The translations under genes were made by a program, and so were the position numbers. From the NCBI GenBank assembly GCA_017938925.1, contig JAGBAO010000013.1, positions 62,001-126,000 of the forward strand: a stretch of 64,000 nt of DNA, written 5' to 3'. The notes under the pieces are model-generated. The model was not told where the DNA came from. It saw only the letters and a list, made by a program, of their open reading frames with translations, and did not search any database. This DNA is from Bacteroidales bacterium. GTDB lineage: Bacteria; Bacteroidota; Bacteroidia; Bacteroidales; UBA932. Of this stretch, positions 24,598-57,939 are shown piece by piece (position 1 is the first letter of the stretch; every line of letters starts with the position of its first letter).

Positions 24598-25467
24598 TTA
24601 CACGATCCTTGCCACCAACTCCGGATCCAGACGTGTGAGTCGTGCAATCTGTTTCAGTCCCGCCCTGCAATTTCTCTTCAGCAACAAGCACAGTTTCAGA
24701 CGCTGATCCATTGAAATCCGATTGATGGAGTCTGCATTGAACTCTTTTCGGATAAGTTCATTCATATGGGTCAGCACTTCCTGATCCGTCATATTGACGT
24801 CATCTGCGGCCCCAAGACGTATCTCGACGTCATTTTCCACCTTCTTGGCAAGAAGCAACATCAGCCTGGATGGATGCCGGAATATATCTTCCACAGCTTT
24901 TACATCAACATAACAGGACGGCATTATCATCCCTTCTTCATCAACCATATAATGGTCTGGCAAAGAGATTCGCGATTTAGTGATACGGAAACGCCTCCTT
25001 TCGCTCATTTCATTTAACTTTTCGCCTGACATGTTCATTTTTCCATTGAAGTAAACCGAAGCAGAAGACCATCTGTAATATACAGGCAACAGCCTGATTC
25101 CTGCTGCCAGAGGATTTCTCAAGACATAGGCGATCACGTTCTCAAGATACTCCTGGCTATCCACTTTATCAATCCGGATCCCCACATCTTTCAGCCCGTG
25201 GGCCTCTCCCGAAGAGAATCTCATCCGCATAGCGCACCTGTGCTTGTACGCATCTGCAAATTTTCTACACTCATCCAATGTTCCATATAGCACAAAATGA
25301 AAATGATTGCTCATAAGGCAGAAGCATATAATGGACACATCATACCCCAAGACGCATATCGCAACATCGTTCATTCCCGCAATGAAATCATCCCGACTTT
25401 TGAAAATATTGTTCCTCTCCAGCCCATGGCTGCTCACATGATAATAACCTTTCTCCATCGTTTTCAT
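24598..25467 (-). CDS. REP-associated tyrosine transposase (RAYT), Y1/HUH family
   Basis: I start at the ATG at 25467; a GTG upstream in frame is possible. The 289-residue product has the Y1 transposase core: YYHVSSHGLERNNIF at the N terminus, then CFCLMSNHFHFVLYG with the metal-binding HFH, a Tyr-bearing helix region (ENVIAYVLRNPLAAGIR) and WSSASVYFNG. This is the TnpA_REP/RAYT branch related to IS200/IS605. A C-terminal extension (about 190-289) ends in a helix-turn-helix-like RAGLKQIARLTRLDPELV. RAYTs act on REP palindromes. It stands alone with its 3' end against the 79-bp repeat, and looks intact. Confidence 0.85.
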   Translation of the reverse strand: MKTMEKGYYHVSSHGLERNNIFKSRDDFIAGMNDVAICVLGYDVSIICFCLMSNHFHFVLYGTLDECRKFADAYKHRCAMRMRFSSGEAHGLKDVGIRIDKVDSQEYLENVIAYVLRNPLAAGIRLLPVYYRWSSASVYFNGKMNMSGEKLNEMSERRRFRITKSRISLPDHYMVDEEGMIMPSCYVDVKAVEDIFRHPSRLMLLLAKKVENDVEIRLGAADDVNMTDQEVLTHMNELIRKEFNADSINRISMDQRLKLCLLLKRNCRAGLKQIARLTRLDPELVARIV

Positions 25468-25591
25468 TTTTATGTATCCCACAAGTCTGATGACACATTC
25501 CCGTCATGCCGCGAAAGTAACTCATGAATTCCGGATCATCAGCAGATCATAAAAAAGATTCATAAAATTTTTCTTTTTCTTTAAATCGATA

Positions 25592-53906: not shown

Positions 53907-53925
53907 ACATGATAATCACATGATC

Positions 53926-55233
53926 ATGCACAAGGAAATCAAATTCGTTTCAGCCGAGGAGGCTGTCAAGGTCGTAAAATCCGGCGACCATATTCATCTG
54001 AGCAGCGTGGCAAGCGCGCCACGCATACTTATTGACGCACTCTGCGCCCGTGGAGACAGAGGAGAGCTTCAGGATGTAAGGATCCATCATCTTCACACCG
54101 AAGGGCCTGCACCGTATTCGGACCCCAAGTACGACGGAATCTTCTTCCATCAGGCCTTCTTTGTCGGAGCCAATGTGCGCAAGGGGGTCCAGGCAGGATA
54201 CGCCGATTATATTCCCGTATTCCTGAGCGAGACTCAGAAGCTCTACAGATGCGGAGCCCTGCGCTGCGACGTGGCGATGATCCAGGTGTGCCCTCCGGAC
54301 AAGCACGGTTATGTTTCGCTCGGAACTTCAGTGGACGCTACGCTGGCGGCGATCGAATGCGCCAAGACCGTGATCGCCGTCGTCAACCCTAACGTGCCGA
54401 GGGCATGGGGACAGGCCATGATTCCTCTGGAGATGATTGATATTTTCGTGGAAGGTAACGAGCCTCTGGAGCCCGCACATTTCAGTGAACCCAACGAGGT
54501 GGAGATTGCCATCGGAAAGCACTGTGCTGAACTGATCGACGACGGAGCATGTCTGCAGATGGGCATAGGAGCCATTCCGAATGCCGTGCTTGCTCAGCTC
54601 GGGAACCATCGCAATCTCGGAGTGCACACGGAAATGTTCGCTGACGGAGTGCTGGAACTCGTGGAAAAGGGAGTCATCAACGGTTCCAACAAGGTGACAG
54701 ACAAGGGGAAGCTCGTGTCCACATTCCTGATGGGATCGCAGAAGGTATATGACTTCATCGACGACAATCCGATGGTGGCGATGATGGATGTGGGATATAC
54801 AAACGACCCGTTCGTCATCTCACGAAACCCTAAGATGACTGCCATCAACTCCGCAGTCCAGATAGACCTGACAGGCCAGGTCTGCGCAGACTCGATCGGA
54901 ACAAGGTTCTATTCCGGAGTCGGCGGACAGGTCGATTTCGTATACGGAGCCTCACTGGCACCTCAGGGCAAGGCGATCATAGCCATGCCGTCAACGACCA
55001 ACAAGGGCGGCAGCAAGATCGCTCCGACAATCATAGAAGGAGGCGGAGTCGTTACGACAAGACCTCATGTGCACTATGTCGTGACTGAGTTCGGAGCAGT
55101 CGACCTCTACGGAAAGTCAATGCAGGAGCGCGCAAAGCTGCTCATAAGCATCGCCCACCCAGACCATCAGGAGGCACTAGACCGTGCGGCATTCGAGCGT
55201 TTCGGGCCGCACTATCACGGGGTGAAGATATAG
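53926..55233 (+). CDS. acetyl-CoA hydrolase / CoA-transferase
   Basis: I chose the ATG at 53926 (MHKEIKFVSAEEAVKVV); an ATG 6 nt upstream is possible. The 435-residue protein is a class I CoA-transferase of the acetyl-CoA hydrolase/4-hydroxybutyrate CoA-transferase type. It has IHLSSVASAPRILIDAL, LSETQKLYR, CPPDKHGYVSLGTSVDA, CLQMGIGAIPNAVL, and the catalytic Glu in LGVHTEMFADG. The C-terminal GGQVDFVYGA and FGAVDLYGKSMQERAKLL are also typical. In gut Bacteroidales such enzymes make or recycle acetate and butyrate-type CoA esters. Exact acyl group not determinable. Its last codons are duplicated 1.7 kb downstream. Confidence 0.87.
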   Translation: MHKEIKFVSAEEAVKVVKSGDHIHLSSVASAPRILIDALCARGDRGELQDVRIHHLHTEGPAPYSDPKYDGIFFHQAFFVGANVRKGVQAGYADYIPVFLSETQKLYRCGALRCDVAMIQVCPPDKHGYVSLGTSVDATLAAIECAKTVIAVVNPNVPRAWGQAMIPLEMIDIFVEGNEPLEPAHFSEPNEVEIAIGKHCAELIDDGACLQMGIGAIPNAVLAQLGNHRNLGVHTEMFADGVLELVEKGVINGSNKVTDKGKLVSTFLMGSQKVYDFIDDNPMVAMMDVGYTNDPFVISRNPKMTAINSAVQIDLTGQVCADSIGTRFYSGVGGQVDFVYGASLAPQGKAIIAMPSTTNKGGSKIAPTIIEGGGVVTTRPHVHYVVTEFGAVDLYGKSMQERAKLLISIAHPDHQEALDRAAFERFGPHYHGVKI

Positions 55234-55313
55234 GGGGCTACTTCTGCGAACGACGTCTGGTGAGCTCGCGCTGGAAGGCGCGGGCATTTTTTTGATGTTC
55301 GCTGTAGGTCACT
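55221..55313 (+). repeat. 93-bp direct repeat A, copy 1 (end of CoA-transferase plus copy of mltG 3' end)
   Basis: Identical by eye to 56890-56983 apart from one extra G. It holds the last four codons of the CoA-transferase gene and, on the - strand, a dead copy of the last 24 codons of mltG (SEHQKNARAFQRELTRRRSQ). It also contains a small CGCGC hairpin followed by ATTTTTTT, which could end the CoA-transferase transcript. Confidence 0.9.
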
Positions 55314-55370
55314 ACCAGACAGAGCAAATATATTACATAGATAGTTTGGATCAAAAATCGGCCGGGCTTT

Positions 55371-55493
55371 AGGAGTTACAATCAAGAAATCGGGCAGTTT
55401 TTTGATCCAAACTGTTGTTTTAGGCGAATACAGCGGTATACTGCCTGTTTTCGGGGGTTACAATCAAAAAACCACGCGATTTTTTGATCGTAA
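55371..55493. repeat. direct repeat B, copy 1, with REP-like hairpins
   Basis: About 94% identical to 56721-56842, same orientation. It contains a 16-bp hairpin (55456-55471 with 55480-55495, one mismatch, 8-nt loop) and a second weak stem ATCAAGAAA/TTTTTTGAT. Upstream AGTTTGGATCAAAAA at 55342 is the inverse of TTTTTGATCCAAACT at 55398. Confidence 0.8.
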
Positions 55494-55660
55494 CCAGAAT
55501 GTGGAGTGTGGCGCACACACCCGCCACGACAGTGCATCCAGCTCGGTTATACTTCCGGCTCGGTAGTGCCTCAGGTTCAAGAATATCGCTCAGGCATATA
55601 TCCAGAGTCATTCCCGGAATCATTCCTCTATGCCAACGACCCCTCTGTCCGGACGAGGTG

Positions 55661-56593
55661 TTATCTTGAACCACGGGGATAGGAGGCAGCCAGACAGCGA
55701 CGAGCCTGAAATTCACTGATGGAACAGGTCTGGCTGAGATAACGGATTGCGTCTGAGACTTCGTGTTCATTCAACATATACACCGATGAACGTCCGAGTT
55801 CCGGAACTATCTGTCTGTCTATTATCGAACATATCTCAATGTCAGACATTGACTTCCGTGAGCGGCCGTATTCGTTTGAGAGCATCTTGTCAAGAGAATG
55901 AAGAGATATCCCTTTCTCAATCAGATCAAGGGTGACAGGAGGCTGCTGATTCCTGTCCTTTTCCTGCTCCGACTTCCATTCCTCTCCAGAGAGACGATTC
56001 ATATAATAGATGTAGGAGCGAGGGGTAAGAAACATGTTTTCCACCTCAGCAACATCGATAACGGTTTCTCTCAAATATACACCGGACTGCGTCATCTTAT
56101 AGTTCGGCGGATATGAAGTCAGACGCGGCAGATGTTTATAATAAGATTTCTCCTGGAGAAGGTCTTCATCCAGCCACTTGCCCAGTTCCTTCCGGAAATA
56201 CACATTTGCAGAAGAGAAACGATAACCGAAAGGCGTCGAGGACAGACCGTGATGAAGAGGGTTTCTCAGGATATAGCATATGGCAGCCAGGATATGATGT
56301 ATGCCCTCCAGTTCAAGAACGAAAGGTGATTCCTCTCCCAAGCGACCCTGTCTGCCGTACTTCCTGTTGAAATAGCGGGAATACATCAGCCAGGCACGAG
56401 ATGCCATTTCCAAAGGGTCCTCAGTCCTGACACCGAGATGAGCATGAGAGGACATCTCTGCATCGGCAAGCAATACAGAATCCGTCTCATGGACAGAAAG
56501 AGCGATGCAGTTGAAGAGTCTGTGATAGTCATCTTCCGAACGGCAGATCAGTTCGTCACCACCGGATATACATATATGATACGGCTTTCGCAT
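55661..56593 (-). CDS. RAYT-like Y1/HUH transposase
   Basis: This is 310 residues starting MRKPYHICISGGDELI. The Y1 core is ADAEMSSHAHLGVRT with the metal-binding HAH, then WLMYSRYFNRKYGRQGRLGEE (candidate Tyr residues), ICYILRNPLHHGLS and YRFSSANVYFRKEL. A C-terminal extension ends with a helix-turn-helix-like VSDAIRYLSQTCSISEFQARR. It is related to the 24.6-kb RAYT in layout but only distantly in sequence. It appears intact. It sits inside nested direct repeats A and B, a REPtron-like arrangement. Confidence 0.8.
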   Translation of the reverse strand: MRKPYHICISGGDELICRSEDDYHRLFNCIALSVHETDSVLLADAEMSSHAHLGVRTEDPLEMASRAWLMYSRYFNRKYGRQGRLGEESPFVLELEGIHHILAAICYILRNPLHHGLSSTPFGYRFSSANVYFRKELGKWLDEDLLQEKSYYKHLPRLTSYPPNYKMTQSGVYLRETVIDVAEVENMFLTPRSYIYYMNRLSGEEWKSEQEKDRNQQPPVTLDLIEKGISLHSLDKMLSNEYGRSRKSMSDIEICSIIDRQIVPELGRSSVYMLNEHEVSDAIRYLSQTCSISEFQARRCLAASYPRGSR

Positions 56594-56609
56594 TTCGTTT
56601 TATTTTTCA

Positions 56610-56617
56610 CAAAAGTA
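56610..56617 (-). promoter_or_regulatory. possible -7 element of the RAYT gene
   Basis: TACTTTTG on the - strand, 16 nt upstream of the ATG at 56593. It fits TAnnTTTG; no clear -33. Confidence 0.3.
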
Positions 56618-56720
56618 CTTGGCGTCAACCAGGCGGAGACTAAAAAAGAGAAATTTTTATGATAAAAAAGGTGCAAAATGACTAAAAAAAAGAAAAATCT
56701 GCACTGTCTTGCCTGGCTTG

Positions 56721-56842
56721 AGGAGTTACAATCAAGAAATCGGGCAGTTTTTTGATCCAAACTGTTGTTTTAGGCGAATACGGCGGGATTCTGCCTGTTT
56801 TCGGGGGTTACTATCAAAAAACCACGCAATTCTTTGATTGTA
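56721..56842. repeat. direct repeat B, copy 2
   Basis: Copy of 55371-55493 with about seven differences. Three of them lie in the hairpin arms, and because only one side changes in places, the hairpin is weaker here. Confidence 0.8.
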
Positions 56843-56889
56843 AATCTGGTCCCCGGGAACAGGAGGTGGTGAAATGCGAAGGCAAGGAA

Positions 56890-56983
56890 GGTGAAGATAT
56901 AGGGGGGCTACTTCTGCGAACGACGTCTGGTGAGCTCGCGCTGGAAGGCGCGGGCATTTTTTTGATGTTCGCTGTAGGTCACT
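56890..56983 (+). repeat. 93/94-bp direct repeat A, copy 2 (true mltG 3' end)
   Basis: Contains the authentic mltG stop (56908-56910) and its last 24 codons. The first bases (GGTGAAGATATAG) are a copy of the end of the CoA-transferase gene. With copy 1 at 55221, it brackets 1.58 kb of RAYT DNA. Confidence 0.9.
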
Positions 56984-57939
56984 GCAAAACGATGGGTGCC
57001 GTCAAAATCAGAGCTGGCGCAGAAATATAGGAATTTATGGTTTTCCGGCGAGAGGACAGCCTCAAGACAGGCCTTTGGAGGGACATTGATCGGGGCTGGA
57101 GGCAGGCCTGCATACTTATATGTATTATATGGTGAGTCCACATTCAGATGCTTCTTCAGGATACGGTCCGGCTCGTAGTTGAAGCAGAAGGCCACGGTAG
57201 GGTCCGCCTGGAGTCTCATTCCCTTGCGGTAACGGTTCAGATAGACTCCGGCTATCCGGGGATATTCAAAGGACTTGAGGGTCTCGCCGCTTACAATGGA
57301 GGCCAGAACCGAGACCTGCATCTGATTCAGTTTCTGAGCCTTGGCCTTGTCGAGACGTTCCTGGGTCCAGAACGCGTCATACTCCTTTTTAAGGCGGTCG
57401 AAGATTTCACGGACTGATGCCGTCCAATACATCTGGTAGGTGTCCGGAAGGATCATCGCAAAGACATTCTCCGGAGTGAAGCCATATGGCTGAAGAAACT
57501 CCGCCGAATCCAGAGCCTGGGCGATGGAGACTGAATCCGCCATCATCTGAGCAGCGATCTTCTGGGCCAGCCGTGCCTTAGTGCGGATGGTTCCGGAAAG
57601 TGTCATATTGCCTGGAGTCTGCCAGCCATGGGTCAGCATTCGGGCCACATATATGCTTGTGAATGAGGGTTCTATGACATATCGCCCCGGTTTCATGCAG
57701 GCTGCGAGATTCTCTTCTTCAAAGCAGCGCTCCAGGCTGCGCGGTCTCTGGGCACCGGCTCCGCTCACCAGTGAATCGATCACTGTCTGCACGGAAGTTT
57801 CAGGCCGCACGAAGAGGACATATTTCTCAGTGAAGTTTGGACGTCTGTTGTCGTTGTACCAGCGGCCGAAGAAGAAACCGGTCACTGCGCCAATGAGGGC
57901 GCAGGATGCCATAAGGATTATTATTCTGTTCCTTTTCAT
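56908..57939 (-). CDS. mltG: endolytic transglycosylase MltG
   Basis: It cleaves nascent peptidoglycan glycan strands and so sets their length. The 343-residue protein has one N-terminal membrane helix (IIILMASCALIGAVTGFFFG), a LysM-like part (about 45-110), and a YceG catalytic domain. That domain has LASIVSGETLKSFEYPRIAGVYLNR with the catalytic Glu, RLQADPTVAFCF, and YNTYKYAGLPPAPINVP. The usual KE before ET is SG here, but the key Glu remains. It begins 6 nt after the glucosaminidase gene, so cell-wall hydrolases form one operon. Confidence 0.92.
   Translation of the reverse strand: MKRNRIIILMASCALIGAVTGFFFGRWYNDNRRPNFTEKYVLFVRPETSVQTVIDSLVSGAGAQRPRSLERCFEEENLAACMKPGRYVIEPSFTSIYVARMLTHGWQTPGNMTLSGTIRTKARLAQKIAAQMMADSVSIAQALDSAEFLQPYGFTPENVFAMILPDTYQMYWTASVREIFDRLKKEYDAFWTQERLDKAKAQKLNQMQVSVLASIVSGETLKSFEYPRIAGVYLNRYRKGMRLQADPTVAFCFNYEPDRILKKHLNVDSPYNTYKYAGLPPAPINVPPKACLEAVLSPENHKFLYFCASSDFDGTHRFAVTYSEHQKNARAFQRELTRRRSQK

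What the first reader, a model, noticed from the sequence alone, without database searches (positions are those of the whole stretch)
55221..56983. RAYT gene inside nested direct repeats that duplicate a host gene junction
A 93-bp segment at 55221 is repeated at 56890 with one base difference. It spans the last codons of the CoA-transferase gene and the last 24 codons of the convergent mltG gene. So the ancestral junction of the two host genes has been duplicated, with 1.58 kb of new DNA between the copies. Inside is a second direct repeat (55371 and 56721, about 94%) flanking an intact RAYT-like HUH transposase. Single-strand HUH transposases are not known to make long target duplications, so this is either a new insertion mode or recombination between duplicates. 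The near-identity suggests it is recent.
Basis: partly seen in the sequence, partly recalled or inferred. Interest (0 to 1): 0.75.

Follow-up and report, generated by a model that had tools for sequence, protein, structure and literature searches.

The report
Transposase unit inside duplicated gene junction
A domesticated-type bacterial transposase gene with its own repeats sits between two nearly identical copies of the junction of two neighbouring genes; similar duplicated gene ends turn up at a few other such loci in relatives, and the evidence leans towards recombination at the occupied site rather than a simple footprint of the transposase jumping in.

Summary
The repeat is real: window 55221-55313 and 56890-56983 (one indel) each carry the last 13 nt of a CoA-transferase gene plus the last 24 codons of convergent mltG. 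The inner 133-bp repeat is the transposase's own pair of REP-like palindromes. The protein is a divergent RAYT/TnpA_REP. No second copy of the unit was found in the genome. The closest relative found (G175) has the orthologous RAYT (87%) at the same junction without detectable duplication, so here the duplication is younger than the RAYT's association with the junction, or was homogenised recently; it is not a proven target-site duplication. Nor is it isolated: of 150 distinct RAYT loci from the genus, 7 carry a copy of a neighbouring gene's end across the RAYT, against 0 of 154 control genes. In two of the seven, long copies (87 and 370 bp) differ mainly at third codon positions, so they diverged as working gene ends in different lineages. 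Best reading: recombination with empty-junction DNA at RAYT/REP-occupied junctions. A genuine long-duplication insertion mode is the main rival, supported by one apparently relocated RAYT (G285) whose junction is empty in a relative.

The parts
53920..55233 (+). CoA-transferase (acetyl-CoA hydrolase/transferase family) gene, left neighbour
   Evidence: Pfam PF02550/PF13336; ORF
55221..55313 (.). left copy of the duplicated gene junction (13 nt of CoA-transferase end, spacer, copy of mltG tail)
55343..55496 (.). left REP-like pair (BIME-like), containing the 133-bp repeat 55361-55493; outer limits are my reading of the palindromes
55661..56593 (-). RAYT/TnpA_REP-like HUH transposase gene, 310 aa, H50-A-H52 and Y107
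   Evidence: one family member hits Pfam Y1_Tnp
56711..56843 (.). right REP-like pair (BIME-like), 93% identical to the left one, direct orientation
56890..56983 (.). right copy of the duplicated junction (copy of CoA-transferase end, spacer, true mltG end)
56908..57939 (-). mltG (endolytic transglycosylase, YceG family), right neighbour
   Evidence: Pfam PF02618, NCBIfam TIGR00247

Best explanation
The locus is a REPtron-like unit: a divergent RAYT gene between two direct copies of its own REP-like pair, long resident at the convergent CoA-transferase/mltG junction. The 93-bp duplication was made later by recombination or repair in which empty-junction DNA (CoA-transferase end joined directly to mltG end) was used on both sides of the RAYT unit, leaving the junction twice. 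Palindrome-rich RAYT loci at convergent gene ends would be breakage and recombination hot spots. Shown: the duplication, the palindromic nature of the inner repeats, the orthologous RAYT without duplication, recurrence at other RAYT loci. Inferred: that host recombination and not the RAYT made it, that an empty-junction allele took part, and the hot-spot idea.
For: G175 carries the 87% RAYT at the same junction, and its spacers show no trace of the mltG or CoA-transferase tail (shuffle fractions 0.51, 0.53, 0.72, 0.08; positive control 0). RAYT 4-fold divergence between the two species (51/121) is near that of neighbours (79/145, 58/114, 77/120), whereas the two junction copies differ by one indel. 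RAYT pairs of 80% identity or more share a neighbour gene in 53 of 66 cases. At yifB, where RAYTs of one clade sit in six sampled species, a tail copy was found in 1 of 6 (L067). In L127 and L069 the copies differ mostly at third codon positions (5/5/28; 2/1/7 and 1/1/6), and L127 is a mosaic of identical and diverged blocks.
Against: It needs an empty-junction allele and illegitimate joins on both sides, more steps than a one-step insertion. At the divergence of G175 a neutral old duplicate could have become unrecognisable, so its absence there is not proof that it never existed; the positive control is coding sequence. The RAYT-side spacers of G000 and G175 are not alike, so residence of the same unit is not proven by its immediate flanks. 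In the three long cases the duplication begins within about 50 nt of the REP-like repeats, as if the unit's ends were defined by them.
Confidence: 0.48

Rival explanations
1. Long, variable target duplication at insertion: the REP-bounded RAYT unit entered an empty junction by a staggered or replicative (flap or template-switch) route, duplicating 93 bp here and 87-370 bp elsewhere; later gene conversion and recombination with other strains homogenised or diversified the copies.
For: One event gives intact empty-type junctions on both sides. Duplications lie within about 50 nt of the REP-like repeats in the three long cases. L069's six nearest RAYTs (74-80%) shared no neighbour gene with it, its junction is empty in G007, and it carries the duplication.
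Against: G175 has the same RAYT at the same place without duplication. An empty junction in a relative was identified only for this locus and for L069. Third-position-biased differences do not fit neutral decay of a duplicate unless recombination followed. HUH Y1 elements are described as not making larger duplications (PMC2817692, passage).
Confidence: 0.35
2. Excision and re-entry by host homologous recombination: the two junction copies let the RAYT unit pop out as a circle carrying one junction and re-enter empty chromosomes by a single crossover, giving hybrid copies.
For: Fits the way L069 and L127 copies combine sequence of two lineages.
Against: Does not explain how the first duplication arose; I had no reads in which a circle or an empty allele of this species could be seen.
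Confidence: 0.1
3. Assembly artefact or strain chimera in a draft assembly (34 contigs).
For: The assembly is a draft of unknown read type.
Against: The two outer joins are unique sequences that need real reads; the contig is 504,659 bp; similar structures occur in other assemblies.
Confidence: 0.05

Closest known systems
RAYT / TnpA_REP with flanking REPs (REPtron): PMC2817692; the Bacteroidetes subclass 2.6 (RAYT group 5) of PMC6006769 is a lead, not tested
   Same: HxH and a tyrosine conserved, gene flanked by its own palindromic repeat pairs, each type single copy in this genome, mostly fixed position
   Different: About 305 aa, against 179 in the table row of subclass 2.6 that I take as mean length; HxH with varying preceding residue and Y[IVT]LRN; the repeat pairs are often direct 80-130-bp repeats on both sides; duplicated host gene ends outside them, which I met in no passage seen
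IS200/IS605 (Y1 transposase) elements
   Same: Related catalytic motifs
   Different: No larger target duplication described (PMC2817692, passage); no multicopy element here
Homology-facilitated illegitimate recombination (PMC3240628, start of abstract seen)
   Same: One homologous and one illegitimate join can add DNA beside a gene end
   Different: Two-sided duplication of a whole junction around a resident unit is not that product in one step (inference)

Membership tests
RAYT / TnpA_REP | HUH motif and catalytic tyrosine | tested here: met
   H50, H52 and Y107 each conserved at 0.99 in 150 aligned proteins, one of them present twice
RAYT / TnpA_REP | Y1_Tnp (Pfam PF01797) domain | tested here: inconclusive
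   No hit for the window protein; 1 of 6 family members hits at 2.7e-4
RAYT / TnpA_REP | Gene flanked by cognate REP palindromes | tested here: met
   Palindromic 133-bp repeats on both sides; a flanking direct repeat of 35 bp or more in 75 of 150 distinct loci of the family
RAYT / TnpA_REP | Many cognate REPs elsewhere in the genome | tested here: inconclusive
   A few partial matches to the REP region in the own genome; no census made
RAYT / TnpA_REP | HUH fold | tested here: inconclusive
   AlphaFold model of mean pLDDT 39.4; no fold search run
RAYT / TnpA_REP | Cleavage and joining of REP ssDNA | not testable with these tools
   biochemistry
RAYT / TnpA_REP | Assignment to a published subclass (2.1-2.8) | not tested
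   no subclass models at hand
IS200/IS605 element | Multicopy mobile unit without larger target duplication | tested here: not met
   No second copy of the unit reported; 93-bp duplication at its flanks

The most novel reading that the evidence does not exclude
RAYT genes of this Bacteroidales genus can move as REP-bounded units into convergent gene junctions, duplicating tens to hundreds of bp of target, through a replicative or flap-joining route unlike the described HUH transposition; the duplications then serve as recombination sites for loss and transfer between strains.
Probability: 0.3. Interest if true: 0.8.

Novelty: new variant of a known kind. Interest (0 to 1): 0.5.

Why it matters
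[quoted passage not shown] Duplicated gene ends bordering RAYT units give a concrete trace of events at these loci, so whether RAYT units move, and how, becomes testable by strain sequencing and a simple assay.

Tried and rejected
Simple target duplication dating from the RAYT's arrival at this junction: not supported as it stands, because of G175. Inner repeat as a second target duplication: rejected, it is the palindromic repeat pair seen at many RAYT loci. A nearby tRNA as integration site: ARAGORN finds none in the window. Remnants of the duplication in G175: none found. Homology of the RAYT-side spacers between G000 and G175: none significant. Source lineage for the left U32 tail of L127: 20 tails compared (one genome twice), all only 54-67% identical to it, some nearer the left and some nearer the right copy. 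Structure: model too poor to use. PDB sequence searches: nothing significant. PHROGs, NCBIfam: nothing significant for the RAYT.

Rows dropped and weak controls. L103 proved to be the same locus as L160 (identical RAYT DNA), so the counts were redone on 150 distinct loci. Three distant relatives in the own genome (L013-L015) were left out of the set. Of 16 loci with a DNA hit I dropped 9 by hand (L073, L141, L152, L157, L169, L170, L189, L197, L209) because the hit is REP-type sequence inside a reading frame; that sorting was not blind. In the protein version of the test (151 loci with L103) 15 loci passed E 0.001: six of the seven kept, eight of those dropped, and L206, also dropped as REP-like; L067 failed there (E 0.003). 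An earlier control (92 genes, mostly mltG surroundings) gave the window RAYT and two weak hits (E 0.002, 0.005). Convergent junctions without RAYT: 0 of 20, too few to weigh. The main control includes one distant RAYT relative of the window (ORF 24598-25482). In one search the CoA-transferase row matched a wrong reading frame and was dropped. L217 and L176 hold short pieces that are not whole junctions.

Full report
What is there. The two outer copies, window 55221-55313 and 56890-56983, are 98.9% identical with one indel. Each holds the last 13 nt of a CoA-transferase gene and the last 24 codons of convergent mltG, so the junction of the two host genes is present twice with 1576 bp between. 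The inner 133-bp repeat (55361-55493, 56711-56843; 93%) is made of inverted palindromes. Between lies an intact 310-aa ORF with H50-A-H52 and Y107, positions conserved at 0.99 in 150 family proteins. The window protein itself has no significant Pfam, PHROGs or NCBIfam match, but 1 of 6 members of its alignment hits Y1_Tnp at 2.7e-4; calling it a RAYT rests on motifs, palindromic flanks and that hit. A structure model was too poor to help.

Own genome. The assembly has 34 contigs, 2.67 Mb and 92% completeness. No second copy of the unit was reported; four RAYTs (this one and three at 46-47% identity) and three distant relatives were found.

The same junction in relatives. In G175 the RAYT (87% aa) lies between the same two genes in the same orientation, with no detectable copy of either gene tail in its spacers. 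Of 56 mltG loci fetched (own included), 18 showed the CoA-transferase within the 1.5-kb flank; 17 of these have no RAYT match between the genes, several with REP-like hairpins by my reading, and one (G431, L078) has a different RAYT (25%) without a detectable mltG-tail copy. G175 itself is seen in L046 and L075, because its CoA-transferase lies beyond the flank of L076. So, where the two genes adjoin, an empty single junction is the common state, and the site has been used by two RAYT lineages.

Age. Between G000 and G175, 4-fold sites differ at 51/121 in the RAYT, 79/145 in mltG, 58/114 in the MazG-like gene and 77/120 in the LysM-like gene. The two junction copies in G000 differ by one indel. 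The left REP-like pair of G000 is 93% like its right one, 81% like the right one of G175 and 68% like the left one of G175. The duplication, and the left REP-like pair, therefore look younger than the RAYT's arrival, or have been homogenised recently. A limit: an old neutral duplicate in G175 might no longer be recognisable.

Is it isolated? I collected 151 RAYT loci: 4 of the own genome, 29 more, 1, and 117 fetched from the capped list. One proved a duplicate record, leaving 150. A flanking direct repeat of 35 bp or more within 700 bp on each side is present in 75 of 150, and of 80 bp or more in 52 of 150; most of those printed are palindromic pairs peculiar to each RAYT. I then asked whether the 3' end of a facing neighbour gene has a copy on the other side of the RAYT: 171 gene ends at 119 loci, 16 loci with a DNA hit, of which 9 are REP-type sequence by my reading and 7 are gene ends: L009 (this locus), L127 (U32-type peptidase tail, 370 bp, 90%; the copy overlaps the last 12 nt of the other gene, so a share of that gene's end is not certain), L069 (nitroreductase and SOD-rubredoxin tails, 87 bp, 82%), L122 (relic of the U32 tail), L067 (26 bp of a YifB/ComM-like gene, one difference), L176 (32 bp of a KduI-like gene), L217 (49 bp, 98%, an internal part of an SGNH-like gene, next to a tRNA-Val gene). 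Gene names other than those are my recognition of the sequence. The same test on 155 genes of the window and of twenty 20-kb regions gave one hit, which is this RAYT itself, so 0 of 154. Fisher one-sided p is 0.007 for 7 of 150 against 0 of 154, and 0.014 if L122 and L127, which are orthologous (82.5%), count once.

What the other cases say. In L127 the differences between copies fall 5/5/28 on codon positions, with long identical and strongly diverged blocks; in L069 they fall 2/1/7 and 1/1/6. Such copies diverged while each was a working gene end, that is in different lineages, and were brought together or exchanged by recombination. Of the 30 loci fetched, one (G007, L290) shows the nitroreductase and SOD-rubredoxin genes side by side, and there the junction is empty. 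The six RAYTs nearest to that of L069 (74-80%) shared no neighbour gene with it (some of those contigs are short, so a shared neighbour could be missed): it is the best candidate for a unit that moved and left a duplication. Against frequent movement, RAYT pairs of 80% identity or more share a neighbour gene in 53 of 66 cases, against 49 of 151 at 70-75%, and six sampled species have RAYTs of one clade beside yifB, one of them with a tail copy.

Mechanism. I favour recombination or repair with empty-junction DNA at a palindrome-rich, RAYT-occupied convergent junction (0.48). The rival is a long-duplication insertion of the REP-bounded unit followed by exchange between strains (0.35); it explains both sides in one step and the closeness of the duplications to the REP-like pairs, but not G175. 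Circle pop-out and re-entry (0.1) and assembly error (0.05) are less likely. The recount did not change these odds.

Literature. Seen as passages: PMC2817692, PMC6006769, PMC8266576, PMC3116915; as listing with start of abstract: PMC3240628. In the listings no title or abstract start reports duplicated gene ends at RAYT loci; most subscription papers are outside that library.

Noticed in passing
L078 (G431:C23): A distantly related RAYT (25% identity) occupies the same CoA-transferase/mltG junction in another species; the junction may be a hot spot for REP-type palindromes.
   Followed up: partly
L010 (G000:C17:66815-70726): A second RAYT of this genome is preceded directly by a 284-aa gene of unknown function, and the 101-bp repeats enclose both genes.
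   Followed up: no
L064, L067, L071, L104, L117, L118: RAYTs of one clade sit at the 3' end of a yifB/comM-like gene in six sampled species.
   Followed up: partly
L118 (G055:C153): An array of about 48-bp tandem repeats flanks a RAYT on both sides.
   Followed up: no
L217 (G356:C33) 1773-1821: A 49-bp piece of a neighbouring gene's coding sequence lies alone between a tRNA-Val gene (1631-1706) and the repeat pair of a RAYT.
   Followed up: partly
window 24598-25482: A distant RAYT relative (25%) lies elsewhere in the window (L013, G000:C16:86862-87443).
   Followed up: no
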